From Gammaproteobacteria bacterium (GTDB lineage: Bacteria; Pseudomonadota; Gammaproteobacteria; Xanthomonadales; Rhodanobacteraceae), in the NCBI GenBank assembly GCA_004295005.1, contig SHNG01000180.1, positions 1 to 61,722 on the forward strand: a DNA stretch of 61,722 nucleotides, written 5' to 3'. The notes below the pieces were generated by a model. The model saw nothing but the letters and a program-made list of their open reading frames with translations. It was not told where the DNA came from and searched no databases. This document shows, piece by piece, positions 32,750 through 58,580 of the stretch. A program made the translations under genes and the position numbers. Positions within the stretch are counted from its first letter, which is position 1, and each line of letters starts with the position of its first letter.

Positions 32750-35458
32750 TCAGTGCGCGCCCTCGACACGCGCGAGGGCGGCATCGATCTCGATCACCTC
32801 GGGCGTGAGCTTCACCAGCGGTTCGGCGAGATAGGCGCGCCCACGCTTGAGCAAAGGCAGGGCGGCGCCGGTATCACCCATGGCCAGCGCGAGATAGCCC
32901 TGCTCAATGTCAGCCTTGGCCCGTTGCTCAACCGAGGTGTCGGCACTGGCACGGATTTCCTCAAGCTGCTTTTGCGCAATCTCGAACTTGCCCTGGTGGC
33001 GGGCGAGTCCTGCGCGCAGCAGCAGCAAACGCCCTCGCAAGACCGCATTTCCGCCGATCAACGGATCGTTCTGCATGGTTTCCAACAAGGATTGTGCTTG
33101 TTCGATCTTTCCGACGCGCAATCTCATCGACGCTTCGACCAATTTCACCTTGGCGCAAAACGGTGGCGCACCGTTTTCACCACAAGCGGCTGATCGTGCC
33201 GCCTTCAAGGATGCCTCGACCGTCTCGGCGCGTCGTTGCACGTCGATGTTGAGTGCCTCGACCCGCTCTGCAATCGACGCCACGGGATGCACATCACTGC
33301 TCGGTTTGGCCTCCAACAGCTGACGGATTTCTGCACTGGCCTCGTCCAGGCGCCCCATCCAATCCAGCACTTCCACGCGCCGATAGCGCCAATAGCGCGT
33401 TTGCGCGTGCTCGCGACCGAAATTCGCGGAGAGGCTTTCGATGACCCGCGCCATGACAGGCTCCGCCTCCGCATAGCGTCGCAGTCCGGCCAGACCGCGC
33501 GCCCGCACACCAAGCAGGCTTTGCAGGAGCGCGCTGTTCTCGGGTTTTTGCAAAAGGTCACTGGCCAACGCAAGGTCGGTAGCGGAAACCGCCTCCTCGT
33601 TGCGCTCCATGGTCGCCAGCAAGTCGGCCTTTCCCAGGACGGCCTGCAGATACGCCTGGTCTTGCGAGCTGCCGAGTGATCGATAGATATCAACGCTCTC
33701 GGAAACCGTAGCCAATGCGCGTTCATGCTCGCCTTGTTCGAACTCCAGGCTGGATTTCAAATCAAGCGACCTCGCCAGTTCGGGAAGCGACTGTGTCCCC
33801 AGGGCGCGAAGCTCGCCAATCGCGTCATCCAGTTTCTTGAGTTCTGATGGATCCTTGTTTTCCAGATAGTCGATATAGGCAAGGCGCGACTCAATCGAAG
33901 CCCTCATCAGCACCGAAGGTCTTGGACTGCGTGCGTTGTACTCAAGTGCCTTGGCAAAGACCGCTCGTGTAGCAGCGTTGTCGATCAAGGCAACGTAGAC
34001 ATTGCCAATCTGATTGAGCAGTGCCGCCGCGATTTCGGGTTCTCCGGAGAGTTCAGTATCGATCCGCTCGCGTGCCGCCTTGAGCAAGTCCGCTGCGTTG
34101 GTTTCCAGTCCCTTGCCCTGGTAGGGATCGGCTGACATGAATATCGAGCTGACGAATTCCCGCGTCACCTCGGACTGATGCAATGCCGCTTGGGCGCGCT
34201 GGGCTTCCAGACTCTTGGCACGCGCCTGCCAGAGCGCGGCAGCGGCAAGGCCGACAATGGACAGGAATCCCGCCCCGGCCAAGGTTGCCGCCAGACGATG
34301 GCGCCGCAGGAAGCGTCGCATTACATACGACATGGCAGGCCGGACAATGGTCAACGGCCGATGATCGAGCCAACGCGAAAGATCCTCGCGCAACAATGCA
34401 ACCGATGCGTAGCGCTTTGCCGGATCCGGATTCAGCGCATGCGCAATGATGCGCCCCAGGTCGCCATGCAACAGGGTTTGAACAGATTTCGAGTTGCCCG
34501 CGACAACGCCCGATGCGGATGCCTCGGTGCTGGCTGGCTGCAACGTGGCCAGCCGCGACAGCTCCCTGCCGGTCCATTCTTCACTTTGCGTTCCGCGCTC
34601 GAGTATTCGCAAGCGTCGCTGGGTGATCAGCTCAAACAGGATCAATCCCAGTGCATGCACATCCGTCGCAGTGGTCACGCGTTCGCCGCGAAGCTGCTCG
34701 GGAGCGGCATATTCGGGCGTGAAGATGCGTGTGGCAGGCGCGGATTCATCGGTGGATTCCAGGGCCAGGGCAATACCAAAGTCCAGCAACTTTGCCGTGC
34801 CCTGCCGATTCACCAGAATGTTGGAAGGCTTGAGGTCGCGGTGCACCACCAGTTGCGCATGCGCATGGGCGACCGCCGCGCACACCTGGTCGAACAGTCC
34901 CAGGCGTTCGCGAATCCCGAAATGCTGATTCCGGCAATGGTCGAGCAGGGAATCGCCATCGACGTATTCCATGGCAATCCAGGCATGCCCTTGCTCCACG
35001 CCCGCGTCGACGAAGGCGGTGATGTTCGGATGTGCAAGCGCAGAGAGGATGCGTCGCTCACGCGCAGCCAGCCGGGTCATGTTGGTGTTTGCAGTATCAA
35101 GCAGCTTGAGGGCAACGCGCTGGGTGAAATCCGCATGCTCGCGCTCAGCGAGATAGACCATGCCCATGCCGCCGGTCCCGATCCGTTCGCGAAGGCGAAA
35201 CGGTCCCAAGCGCTCCGGCACCGCAACATCATGTGCTGGTTGCGCATCCAGCATCGGCTGGGTGTGCAGGTCCGGCGATTTCTCGGAGTCGGCCAGCAAG
35301 CGCCGCATGCTGGCGGCCTCTCCTGCATTGCGATTCGCCATATCAAGCAGGCGGCTTTCGCGTTGCTCGGGCGTCAATGCCAGCAGGTCATCAAGCATCG
35401 CACGCAACTGGATCCAGCGTTCTGCCGAAAACAGCGGTGCGCCTGAAACCTCATTCAC
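32750..35458 (-). CDS. transmembrane Ser/Thr protein kinase with tetratricopeptide-type C-terminal region
   Basis: 902 residues. GTG at 35458 has AGGAGG six bases upstream. The kinase domain (about 88-370) has the glycine loop GTGGMGMVY (94-102), Lys118, the catalytic HRDLKPSN (His206-Arg207-Asp208), DFG 226-228 and the APE motif, so it should be active. One membrane segment lies at 389-410. The remaining ~490 residues are helical TPR-like repeats with few clear consensus units (for example AVLGKADLLATMERNEEAV, and ALAMGDTGAALPLLKRGRA). This layout, with a short N-terminal helical segment, is common in bacterial Hanks-type kinases found near ECF sigma factors, but none is adjacent here. Its target is unknown. 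Confidence 0.87.
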   Translation of the reverse strand: MNEVSGAPLFSAERWIQLRAMLDDLLALTPEQRESRLLDMANRNAGEAASMRRLLADSEKSPDLHTQPMLDAQPAHDVAVPERLGPFRLRERIGTGGMGMVYLAEREHADFTQRVALKLLDTANTNMTRLAARERRILSALAHPNITAFVDAGVEQGHAWIAMEYVDGDSLLDHCRNQHFGIRERLGLFDQVCAAVAHAHAQLVVHRDLKPSNILVNRQGTAKLLDFGIALALESTDESAPATRIFTPEYAAPEQLRGERVTTATDVHALGLILFELITQRRLRILERGTQSEEWTGRELSRLATLQPASTEASASGVVAGNSKSVQTLLHGDLGRIIAHALNPDPAKRYASVALLREDLSRWLDHRPLTIVRPAMSYVMRRFLRRHRLAATLAGAGFLSIVGLAAAALWQARAKSLEAQRAQAALHQSEVTREFVSSIFMSADPYQGKGLETNAADLLKAARERIDTELSGEPEIAAALLNQIGNVYVALIDNAATRAVFAKALEYNARSPRPSVLMRASIESRLAYIDYLENKDPSELKKLDDAIGELRALGTQSLPELARSLDLKSSLEFEQGEHERALATVSESVDIYRSLGSSQDQAYLQAVLGKADLLATMERNEEAVSATDLALASDLLQKPENSALLQSLLGVRARGLAGLRRYAEAEPVMARVIESLSANFGREHAQTRYWRYRRVEVLDWMGRLDEASAEIRQLLEAKPSSDVHPVASIAERVEALNIDVQRRAETVEASLKAARSAACGENGAPPFCAKVKLVEASMRLRVGKIEQAQSLLETMQNDPLIGGNAVLRGRLLLLRAGLARHQGKFEIAQKQLEEIRASADTSVEQRAKADIEQGYLALAMGDTGAALPLLKRGRAYLAEPLVKLTPEVIEIDAALARVEGAH

Positions 35459-42911: not shown

Positions 42912-42985
<74 letters not shown>

Positions 42986-43038
42986 GATTTTCCGCGGCTG
43001 CGCAGATTGATACGTCTACGAAAGCGCAGGGCTCTTTG

Positions 43039-43617
43039 CTACTCGAGTATGGATCGAACCGCCTCCAAAGCCTCCTGCACAATCTGGGCAGGCGCTTTTT
43101 CCATGCGCTTGAGGAAACTCTGATTTTGCTCGTCATCCCGGAATCGCGAAGCGATATCCGGACCTGCGAAGGCATGGATGCCGAAGCGGAACGCCGCAGG
43201 CGGCCCGAAGGGCGAACGCCGGGAGGCGTGAGTCATCCAGTGCCTTTGCATTCCAACGAGTTGCGAAAAGGTCACTGGGTTGACTCGCCGCTCCTGCGGC
43301 TCGCCCATTGGGTCATCGGCTATGCCGATGTTCGCTCCGGCTTCAAAGGCCATGGATGGCCTGCATGCAGGAAATGCAGGAGCACCTTCCTGCCTGCCTG
43401 GGCAGTCCGCCTTCGCGGGAACGACGAAGATTGGGAATAATCAGAGTTTCCTTAAACGTCCGTGCCCGCGCATCAACCGTGCGGGTCTGATCGCAGAGAA
43501 TGATACCTTGGGTTTTTGTACCCGCTCCCAACAGCATCACGCTGAACCCGGTTTCGCCCGAAGCGATACCGCCTTGCGTGATCGGCGCCAACAGGAGCAG
43601 CCCGGATGCGTTGTGAG
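43039..43617 (-). pseudogene. ChpB/MazF-family toxin remnant split by a MITE
   Basis: On the minus strand, 43617 to 43452 reads NASGLLLLAPITQGG, then TGFSVMLLGAG, and DQTRTVDARARTF-K, the core of ChpB/PemK-type mRNA interferases. The element at 43113-43451 interrupts it. Beyond the element the same strand resumes with KRMEKAPAQIVQEALEAVRS and ILE before a TAG at 43039-43041, a normal C-terminus of that family. Removing the element and one 4-bp duplicate joins ACG-TTC-AAG-CGC in frame (Thr-Phe-Lys-Arg). The first ~40 residues of the toxin are not recognisable upstream, and no antitoxin gene was found, so the locus is broken at both ends. Confidence 0.8.
43113..43451. mobile_element. MITE copy 3, long form, inserted in the toxin gene
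   Basis: A 339-bp element bounded by GGAAACTCTGAT and ATCAGAGTTTCC, with flanks TTGA (43109-43112) and TTAA (43452-43455), a 4-bp duplication differing at one base. Inside are CATCCCGGAATCGCGAAGCG and, around 43185-43430, a segment rich in GCGGCCCGAAGGGCGAACGC and CAGTCCGCCTTCGCGGGA. Related sequence occurs at 58065-58290. No transposase frame is present. Confidence 0.9.
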
Positions 43618-43716
43618 CATGTCCTTGTCCATCGCACACTGGTCAGATGCAATGCCGCTGCAATTCCTTGTCGCCTGGGACAGAGCGCAGCAGTTCGCAG
43701 GCAAGACGGAAATTGT

Positions 43717-44422: not shown

Positions 44423-46306
44423 GTGAAAAGCAATGCCATCAAATCCGGACCCGCCCGTGCACCTGCCCGCGCCATGCTGCGCGCGACAGGTCTGGATGAT
44501 GCCGCGATCGCCAAACCGTTCGTCGGCGTGATCCACACCTGGACCGATGTCTCGCCGTGCAACCTGAACCTGCGCGAATTGGCCCGGCATGTACGCGAAG
44601 GCGTGCAGTCCGCTGGCGGCACCGCGGTCGAGTTCAACACGATCGCGGTGACCGATGGCATCGCCATGGGTTCCGCAGGCATGCGCGCGTCACTGGCTTC
44701 ACGCGAAACCATCGCCGATTCAATCGAACTGGCCGCACTTGGCCACTGCCTTGATGCGCTGGTGCTGCTGGTCGGTTGCGACAAGACCATCCCGGCTGCG
44801 GTGATGGCGGCGGCGCGCCTGGACCTGCCGACGGTGATCCTCTACGGCGGCACCATCATGCCCGGGCATTGCCCCATCAAGGAATCGGGAGCCAAAGGCG
44901 ACCCACGCGCGTCCCTCGCCCGCACAGCGGGAGAGGGGGTCGAGGCCGCCTCCAGCGGGCGAAGGGTCGGCGGAGCCGATGGTGGGGTGAGGGTAAAAGC
45001 CTTGAGCGGAAGCACAGCCATACCCATCACCGTGCAGGACGTATTCGAAGCGGTCGGCGCACACGCGGCGGGCAGCATCGACGATGCGCAACTGCACGCC
45101 ATCGAATCGCGTGCCTGCCCCGGTGCGGGTGCCTGCGGTGGTCAGTTCACCGCCAACACCATGGCCATGGTGTTGACCTTCCTCGGCCTGTCGCCGCTGG
45201 GATTCAACGATGTTCCGGCCGTGCATGCCGACAAGCCAGCCGCCGCGCGTGCTTGCGGCGAACGGGTAATGCAGCTCTTGCGCGATGACGGGCCGACACC
45301 CCGCGACCTCCTCTCCCCCGCGGCGCTGCGCAACGCCGCGCGCGCGGTGTCGGCCACGGCGGGTTCCACCAATGCGGCGCTGCACCTGCTCGCGATTGCC
45401 CATGAAGCCGGAGTCACCTTCGACCTCGAGGATTTCCACAACGCGGCAAGCACGCCGGTGATTGCCGACTTGAAACCCGGCGGCCGCTACACCGCCGCCG
45501 AGATGTTCGCCGCCGGTGGCGTGGCCCTGGTTGCACGCGAGTTGCGCGCGGCCGGTCTGATCGATGACGTCGCCAGCGTGGATGGACCGTCGTTCTTTGC
45601 CGTACTCGACGCCCTGCCCACGGCCAATGCGCAAGACGTGGTGCATCCGGTGGCCAATCCGCTCAAGCCGTGTGGCGGCTATTCCATCCTTTACGGCGAC
45701 CTCGCTCCGCAAGGTTGCATCGTCAAACTCGCCGGCCACGGCCGCGACCGTTTCGAAGGGCCGGCGCGCGTGTTTGATTCGGAAGAAGACACCTTCGCCG
45801 CCGTGCAGGATCGCAAGATCCAGGCGGGCGATGTGGTGGTGATCCGCTTCGAAGGCCCTGCCGGTGGACCGGGCATGCGCGAAATGCTGGCGGTGACTGC
45901 GGCACTGGTCGGCCAGGGTCTCGGCAATGAAGTCGCCCTGATCACCGATGGCCGCTTCAGTGGCGCCACCCACGGCTTCATGGTGGGTCACGTCGCGCCG
46001 GAAGCAGCACGCGGCGGACCCATTGCCCGCCTGCGTGATGGCGACCGCGTATGCATCGATGTCGCTGCCCGTCGCATCGACGTCGCTGCCGATCTCGCCC
46101 AACGCGAACCGGCGCGCATCGCGCCACGCGTCACCACCGGCGTTCTCGCCAAGTACGCGCGCGATGTTTCTTCGGCATCCAAGGGTGCGGTCACTTCACC
46201 GGGCTTGCTCGAAATAGCCGCCACGCGCTCACCGACGGCTTCCGTAGGAGCGCTTTCAGGCGCGACCGAAGCTCGAATACCAGCGCCAAGCCCTGTTCGC
46301 GCCTGA
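44423..46306 (+). CDS. ilvD: dihydroxy-acid dehydratase with repeat-derived insertions
   Basis: 627 residues from a GTG with AAGGA upstream; the short form of the family usually has about 560-570. It removes water from 2,3-dihydroxy-3-methylvalerate/isovalerate using an iron-sulfur cluster (Cys in VGCDKTIPA and [16 protein letters not shown]). Between GTIMPGHC and [16 protein letters not shown], where relatives have a few residues, it carries about 45 residues, partly encoded by a REP-like element (44908-44996). After the normal ending [17 protein letters not shown] it continues with ~27 residues ending in SPVRA; those from about [11 protein letters not shown] onward, and the stop codon itself, come from a REP palindrome. 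It is the first gene of the operon after the attenuator. Confidence 0.93.
44908..44996. repeat. REP-like element inside ilvD
   Basis: GCGTCCCTCGCCCGCACAGC followed by GGGAGAGGG, a GC-rich middle and GGTGGGGTGAGGGT. This is the same composition as the CTCTCCCGC...GCGGGAGAGG...GTGAGGGTGG units at 9994-10320. It lies inside the ilvD reading frame and encodes roughly residues 162-191 (SLARTAGEG...GGVRV) without a frameshift or stop. Confidence 0.75.
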
Positions 46307-58064: not shown

Positions 58065-58290
58065 CGGCGGGCCGCGGGGCGGAGGCCGAATCCGGCTGGC
58101 GGCCCGATGAACGAGCCCCGGATGGGTGTGAGAGATCCCGTGTCTTTGCGGTTCGATGAAACACGGCAAACCCACCGCGTCAATTCGCCGCACCTGAGCC
58201 TCACCCGTTGGTCATCGGCCACATGGATGTCGGCTTCGGCATCCTGCCTGCGCAGTCCGCTTTCGCGGAATGGATGAAGATCGAAAATGA
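58065..58290. repeat. long dispersed repeat related to the core of the 43113 element
   Basis: By eye the stretch shares word order with 43185-43430: GGCGGCCCGA, a GGGTGTGAG/GGCGTGAG block, GTGTCTTTGCGGTTC / GTGCCTTTGCATTCC, CCCGTTGGTCATCGGC / CCCATTGGGTCATCGGC, and CAGTCCGCTTTCGCGGA / CAGTCCGCCTTCGCGGGA. It codes for nothing recognisable. With the MITE at 58312 it fills most of the 57880-58580 interval; 58426-58580 shows no gene. Confidence 0.65.
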
Positions 58291-58311
58291 ACCGAGGCTC
58301 CCTGGCCCCAG

Positions 58312-58421
58312 GGAAGGAATGAACAAGTATTGTCGCGAGCAAGCTCGCTGCCACAAAATCAGGCAATGGTGGGAGCGAGCTTGCTCGCGACGATTGAGTT
58401 CCGTACTTGTTCAGAGTTTCC
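58312..58421. mobile_element. MITE copy 4, REP-like core
   Basis: A 110-bp element, ends GGAAGGAATGAACAAGTA and TACTTGTTCAGAGTTTCC, flanked by CCAG on each side (58308-58311 and 58422-58425). The core TGTCGCGAGCAAGCTCGCTG / GGGAGCGAGCTTGCTCGCGA is that of copy 1 at 35581, in the opposite orientation. Confidence 0.9.
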
Positions 58422-58580
58422 CCAGATCTGAATAAGTCCAGCGCATTCACCGCAAGGTTCGCGCGCAGCGAGCGGGTGGAGGTGCTGCGCCCATCCACCC
58501 TGCTGCTGCGTTGCTGATCACACCAATTGAACCCTCATTGCGGTTCCATGACCCAGCACGACTGACACAACATCACTGGT

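What the first reader, a model, noticed from the sequence alone, without database searches (positions are those of the whole stretch)
43039..43640. A toxin gene caught in the act of being split by a MITE
A ChpB/MazF-like toxin core (LLLLAPITQGG, DQTRTVDARARTF) is interrupted by the 339-bp element; past it the toxin resumes as KRMEKAPAQIVQEALEAV. Taking out the element plus one TTAA/TCAA copy restores Phe-Lys-Arg in frame. This both proves insertion and gives the family a natural empty-site reference. The toxin's N-terminal part is also missing, so decay had begun or followed.
Basis: seen in the sequence. Interest (0 to 1): 0.75.

Follow-up and report, generated by a model that had tools for sequence, protein, structure and literature searches.

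The report
Jumping element inside dead antitoxin-less toxin
A small non-coding jumping element sits inside the broken remains of a bacterial toxin-antitoxin gene, a sister species still has the gene whole without the element, and this is a well-documented but ordinary case of gene decay.

Summary
On the minus strand, 43457-43614 encodes about residues 38-91 of a ChpB/MazF-type toxin and 43039-43110 its last 23 residues plus stop. Between them lies a 339-bp element (43113-43451) with perfect 13-bp inverted ends and an imperfect 4-bp duplication (TTGA/TTAA). A same-genus genome, G003, has a full-length toxin-antitoxin pair beside the same rpoD gene without the element; both flanks of the window element end on the same four bases there. 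That is a natural empty site, shown without joining the halves. Of 26 TIR-bounded intervals read in this genome, 14 have perfect duplications, 11 of them YTAR; G003 holds a 1191-bp IS5-family element sharing one end. It is an IS5-type MITE. The missing toxin start and antitoxin are best explained by a deletion. "Caught in the act" overstates it: the gene is a relic. Unexpectedly, the element's arms carry inverted copies of a structured 75-bp cassette also found outside such elements in relatives and resembling, below the Rfam cut-off, RtT RNA repeats. New member of a known kind.

The parts
43039..43110 (-). Fragment B: last 23 codons and stop of a ChpB/MazF-type toxin
   Evidence: alignment to C-termini of relatives (0 of 500 shuffles as good in each of 6); DNA match to G003
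43109..43112 (.). Target-site duplication copy, TTGA
   Evidence: maps to L064:10973-10970
43113..43451 (.). 339-bp IS5-type MITE with perfect 13-bp terminal inverted repeats
   Evidence: family in own genome and G003
43162..43236 (+). Left-arm structured cassette inside the MITE
   Evidence: 61.6 bits with a model built from 16 copies of other genomes that have no TIR within 400 bases
43278..43407 (-). Right-arm cassette, opposite orientation, enlarged by about 49 bp
   Evidence: 47.9 bits; the 49 bp are absent from the 290-bp forms
43452..43455 (.). Target-site duplication copy, TTAA
   Evidence: maps to the same four bases of G003 as 43109-43112
43457..43614 (-). Fragment A: middle of the ChpB/MazF-type toxin
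43615..43659 (.). Deletion junction: no match to G003 locus L064; toxin start and antitoxin absent
   Evidence: antitoxin not found in own genome
42440..42599 (.). Neighbouring 160-bp MITE with the same ends (one mismatch in one end) and a perfect TTGG duplication
   Evidence: 160-bp relatives in G003 and a Dokdonella MAG
42912..42985 (+). tRNA gene, anticodon CAT, just past the toxin's 3' end

Best explanation
A ChpS-ChpB-like type II toxin-antitoxin pair once stood between rpoD and ilvD, next to a tRNA gene. A 339-bp non-autonomous IS5-family element, moved in trans by an IS5-family transposase acting on shared ends, inserted after about residue 92 of the toxin and duplicated 4 bp (shown by empty site, duplication and TIRs; the transposase donor is inferred). 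Separately, a deletion removed the toxin's first third and the whole antitoxin (inferred from comparison with G003; order of the two events unknown). The locus no longer encodes a working toxin (inferred).
For: Fragments A and B match adjacent parts of the same gene. In G003 a full-length pair (antitoxin over the PF04014 cut-off; toxin 91.7 bits for PF02452, and 118.6 bits for NF007320, whose cut-off is 129) lies beside rpoD (rpoD region 92.5% identical DNA), and window 43112 and 43455 both map to L064:10970. Element family: 61 TIR hits with at most 1 mismatch against 0 for the reversed control in the own genome, 45 against 0 in G003. Of 26 TIR-bounded intervals read, 14 have a perfect 4-bp duplication, 8 one mismatch, 2 two, 2 four; 11 of the 14 perfect ones fit YTAR. 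G003 has a 1191-bp element with an IS5-family transposase (NF033581, 361 bits), CTAG on both sides and a right end sharing 17 nt with the MITE end.
Against: The duplication differs at one of four bases and G003's site reads CTGA, so the target was not YTAR if it was TTGA. No matching transposase was found in the own genome: its one PF01609 hit has no such TIR with up to 3 mismatches in the fetched stretch and no tblastn match to the donor transposase; but the draft is 87% complete. The donor's left end matches the MITE end at 9 of 13 positions (10 of 13 for the variant ending GATC).
Confidence: 0.95

Rival explanations
1. Assembly artefact: a repeat copy wrongly placed between contig pieces.
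For: The genome is a 197-contig draft with many copies of the element.
Against: A chance misjoin would not place the two halves of one gene in order, same strand, with near-matching 4-bp flanks and one-codon spacing; rpoD and ilvD on the two sides both lie near this toxin in G003.
Confidence: 0.02
2. The toxin was truncated and dead before the element landed; the insertion was neutral.
For: Toxin start and antitoxin are gone; two other same-genus genomes (G001, G009) have copies that look damaged without an element at this site; fragment A dN/dS is 0.27 against G003, while 9 computable pairs among five full-length copies give 0.03-0.13 (52-53 codons, no significance test).
Against: Nothing dates the two events; window values against the same five overlap that range (0.09-0.27), and fragment B shows no such rise; both fragments are free of stops.
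Confidence: 0.45
3. The element landed first and inactivated the toxin, after which the antitoxin could be lost.
For: Fits the usual rule (recalled) that an antitoxin is dispensable once its toxin is dead; no stops in A or B.
Against: The deletion removes toxin start and antitoxin together, so it needs no earlier inactivation.
Confidence: 0.45

Closest known systems
IS5-family-derived MITEs
   Same: Short, no transposase gene, an end shared with an IS5-family element, 4-bp YTAR-like duplications, tens of copies
   Different: Longer forms carry one or two inverted copies of a structured cassette that exists independently in relatives
ChpB/MazF (PemK) toxins with ChpS/MazE antitoxins
   Same: Fragments A and B match middle and C-terminus; G003, G006 and G001 have an antitoxin-like gene close to their toxin match
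   Different: Start and antitoxin missing; coding sequence interrupted
MITE insertional inactivation of genes, as in the review PMC10969869 (passages only: Anabaena mcy cluster; Chunjie-1 in a Geobacter phosphate operon)
   Same: Gene broken by a MITE
   Different: Target is a toxin-antitoxin gene that had also lost its partner
RtT RNA (RF00391)
   Same: Cassette copies in three relatives' loci align to the model over its full length at 27-41 bits
   Different: Below the 45-bit cut-off; the window right arm scores only 18.2 bits

Membership tests
IS5-derived MITE | terminal inverted repeats | tested here: met
   13 of 13 bp perfect
IS5-derived MITE | 4-bp target duplication, YTAR-like (YTAR rule recalled) | tested here: met
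   family: 14 of 26 intervals perfect, 11 of those 14 YTAR; this copy has one mismatch
IS5-derived MITE | multiple copies, no transposase gene | tested here: met
   339 bp; longest ORF overlapping it is 161 aa
IS5-derived MITE | autonomous IS5 element with matching ends | tested here: met
   G003 L079:1316-2506: right end 17 nt shared, left end 9 of 13; not found in own genome
IS5-derived MITE | mobilised in trans by that transposase | not testable with these tools
   needs a transposition assay
ChpB/MazF toxin | profile match | tested here: met
   fragment A 23.5 bits against Pfam cut-off 23.1; NCBIfam ChpB 53.3 against 129, below its cut-off as a fragment
ChpB/MazF toxin | complete reading frame with cognate antitoxin | tested here: not met
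   remnant only, so filed as a pseudogene
RtT RNA | Rfam gathering score | tested here: not met
   18.2 bits for the window right arm; 1 of 10 genus genomes has any copy over the cut-off

The most novel reading that the evidence does not exclude
This IS5-type MITE family has captured an independent, structured RNA-like repeat, related to the RtT repeats found between tRNA-Tyr and tRNA-Gly genes, and carries it in inverted pairs in its two arms, so that the MITE spreads a tRNA-operon repeat around the genome.
Probability: 0.4. Interest if true: 0.5.

Novelty: new member of a known kind. Interest (0 to 1): 0.3.

Why it matters
It gives a clean, orthologue-backed empty site for this MITE family, fixing its ends, duplication and likely IS5 donor, and shows one route by which toxin-antitoxin pairs die. 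The paired cassettes link a MITE to a structured repeat otherwise found outside such elements, near a tRNA or tmRNA gene in 7 of the 13 loci checked, which makes the origin of MITE modules testable.

Tried and rejected
Considered and rejected: chance similarity of fragment B (0 of 500 shuffles in each of 6 relatives); assembly misjoin; a plain hairpin repeat without transposon ends (rejected by the duplications). Literature searches with no paper holding all terms; some searches listed general papers, of which I saw listings only, apart from passages of PMC10969869. Four of ten relatives (L034, L037, L038, L039) were read on the wrong strand; three of those genomes were read again correctly; G008 (L039) was not, so it is left out of the nine. 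Of the 26 intervals, C33:23137-23465 overlaps another and C2:29055-29454 is a tandem composite; both are kept in the counts. One search printed 28 distinct cassette segments, with a shorter trim, aligned 26.

Full report
Observation. On the minus strand the window holds two pieces of one toxin gene. Fragment A (61 codons given, 43457-43639) matches ChpB profile NF007320 at positions 38-91 of 116 (E 2.5e-14) and PF02452 (E 6.7e-5). Fragment B (43042-43110, then a stop) is 23 residues and hits no profile alone, but aligns to the end of the relatives' proteins; in the 6 relatives that read on the right strand, 0 of 500 shuffles scored as well.

Between them. 43113-43451 is 339 bp with perfect 13-bp inverted ends and flanks TTGA and TTAA. 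From the end of A to the start of B there are 346 nt; 339 plus 4 leaves exactly one codon. Fragment A matches in 11 of 60 genomes, the own one included. In nine of the ten relatives (G001, G003, G006, G009, G025, G032, G049, G055, G058) one residue lies between the A-like and B-like parts; the tenth, G008, was not read on the right strand. This arithmetic replaces a joined reading, which I did not make.

Empty site. G003, same genus, keeps rpoD (region 92.5% DNA identity) and, next to it, an 83-aa antitoxin (PF04014 27.8 bits against 24.7; below the NCBIfam cut-offs for MazE and ChpS) and a 115-aa toxin (PF02452 91.7 bits against 23.1; NF007320 118.6 against 129). Window 43038-43112 maps to L064:11044-10970 and 43455-43614 to 10970-10811, so both duplication copies fall on L064:10973-10970, which reads CTGA.

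The rest of the gene. In the window, homology to G003 stops at 43614 and resumes at 43660 with L064:1994. L064:1995-10810, 8,816 bp with the toxin start and antitoxin, matches the whole window only through dispersed repeats (MITEs at L064:2610-2893, the 48-bp tRNA 3' half) and one weak 79-bp stretch at window 34769-34846. Because the break lies inside the toxin gene I read this as a deletion in the window lineage. The antitoxin was not found in the own genome (0 matches at E 0.001; 3 of 10 genus genomes match, the query's own G003 included), and fragment A is the only toxin match there. The draft is 87% complete.

The element family. The own genome has 61 TIR hits with at most one mismatch and the reversed control none; G003 has 45 and none. 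BLAST with the element finds pieces in 8 of 10 genus genomes (75 in G000, 72 in G003, 30 in G007, whose list is cut); outside G000 and G003 the listed pieces fall mostly in the cassette regions. Among fetched stretches, 26 TIR-bounded intervals of 131-400 bp were read; 14 have perfect duplications, 8 one mismatch, 2 two, 2 four; two of the 26 are an overlap and a tandem composite. Eleven of the 14 perfect duplications fit YTAR, the target I recall for the IS5 subgroup. The donor candidate in G003 (L079:1316-2506, 1191 bp) carries a 329-aa transposase (NF033581 361 bits; PF01609), CTAG on both sides, a right end sharing 17 nt with the MITE end, and a left end matching 9 of 13 (10 of 13 for the GATC variant). 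The own genome's only PF01609 hit does not match that transposase. A 29-base element pattern occurs in a Dokdonella MAG and two Rhodanobacter genomes (7 stretches; records very near the window may be left out of that collection); 4 of 4 Dokdonella stretches and 0 of 3 Rhodanobacter stretches are TIR-bounded.

Anatomy. The basic form is about 143 bp; 215-, 218-, 290- and 339-bp forms add a cassette in the left arm, the right arm or both. The two cassettes are inverted relative to each other. A covariance model built from 16 copies in other genomes, none with a TIR (up to 3 mismatches) within 400 bases on either side, finds both arms of the window element (61.6 bits plus strand, 47.9 bits minus strand), a third copy at 58179-58257 (46.8 bits) and one weak match (12.4 bits), and 23 matches in the 36 own-genome loci given. 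The cassette matches in 9 of 10 genus genomes and 18 of 59 family genomes, 14 of 26 genera, the own genome included in each, so it exists apart from this MITE. Aligned cassettes keep 330 of 338 cells paired with 3 of 13 pairs changed on both sides; the reverse strand gives almost the same (304 of 312, 3 of 12), so the sense strand is unsettled; the structure was derived from the same alignment and no shuffle control was run.

RtT link. Cassette copies in three loci (L100, L101, L105) match Rfam RtT below its cut-off (40.6, 34.1, 27.2 bits against 45). Against it: plainly unrelated families score alike on the same loci (for example mir-2068 35.2 and CC3664 39.3 bits), and the window's own right arm scores 18.2 bits. 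For it: RtT hits occur in 8 of 10 genus genomes at E 0.01, one over the cut-off, and of 14 control genomes only in E. coli. Of the 8 RtT loci fetched, 5 lie between tRNA-Tyr and tRNA-Gly (L125, L127, L128, L131, L132), one has no tRNA (L129), and two are the same places as L100 (no tRNA) and L101 (tmRNA). The cassette model, not trained on the tRNA-Tyr loci, matches at the RtT position in 5 of 5 of them, weakly (13-26 bits, E 3e-7 to 7e-3). Of the 13 loci that supplied the cassette model, 7 have a tRNA or tmRNA gene in the fetched stretch. The link is a lead. The folded element is far more stable than 100 shuffles (z -9.9 and -9.2, 0 as good), as expected of paired inverted modules.

Age and order. 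The closest full-length paralogue is 96.8% identical, one duplication base differs, and fragment A shows dN/dS 0.27 against G003, compared with 0.03-0.13 in 9 computable pairs among five full-length copies (few codons, no test). Window values against those five (0.09-0.27) overlap that range and fragment B shows no rise. Copies that look damaged also occur in G001 and G009. Nothing here orders the insertion and the deletion.

Verdict. It is an ordinary MITE insertion in a decaying toxin-antitoxin locus, with an interesting modular element.

Noticed in passing
L064:11244-11489 (G003), orthologous to window 42948/42949: In G003 the CAT-anticodon tRNA gene is split right after the anticodon by a 246-bp insert that matches the group I intron model (RF00028, 57.2 bits against 50); the window's copy has no intron.
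   Followed up: partly
L064:10171-10218 (G003): A second copy of the tRNA 3' half lies on the far side of the toxin-antitoxin pair, as if the pair had been part of an element integrated at the tRNA; an exact 29-base search found one copy in the window.
   Followed up: partly
window about 44880-45015: ilvD appears to carry an in-frame insert that by eye looks repeat-like; G003 has a different stretch at the same place. Not tested against other IlvD proteins.
   Followed up: partly
window 58179-58257: Another copy of the structured cassette (46.8 bits), beside a further repeat at 58306-58425 that also occurs in G003.
   Followed up: partly
L125, L127, L128, L131, L132: RtT-like repeats, below the Rfam cut-off in four of these five, sit between tRNA-Tyr and tRNA-Gly in this genus; RtT is known after tRNA-Tyr in E. 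coli (recalled).
   Followed up: partly
L068 (G001), L069 (G009): The same toxin gene looks damaged in two other genus members, with no element at this site.
   Followed up: no
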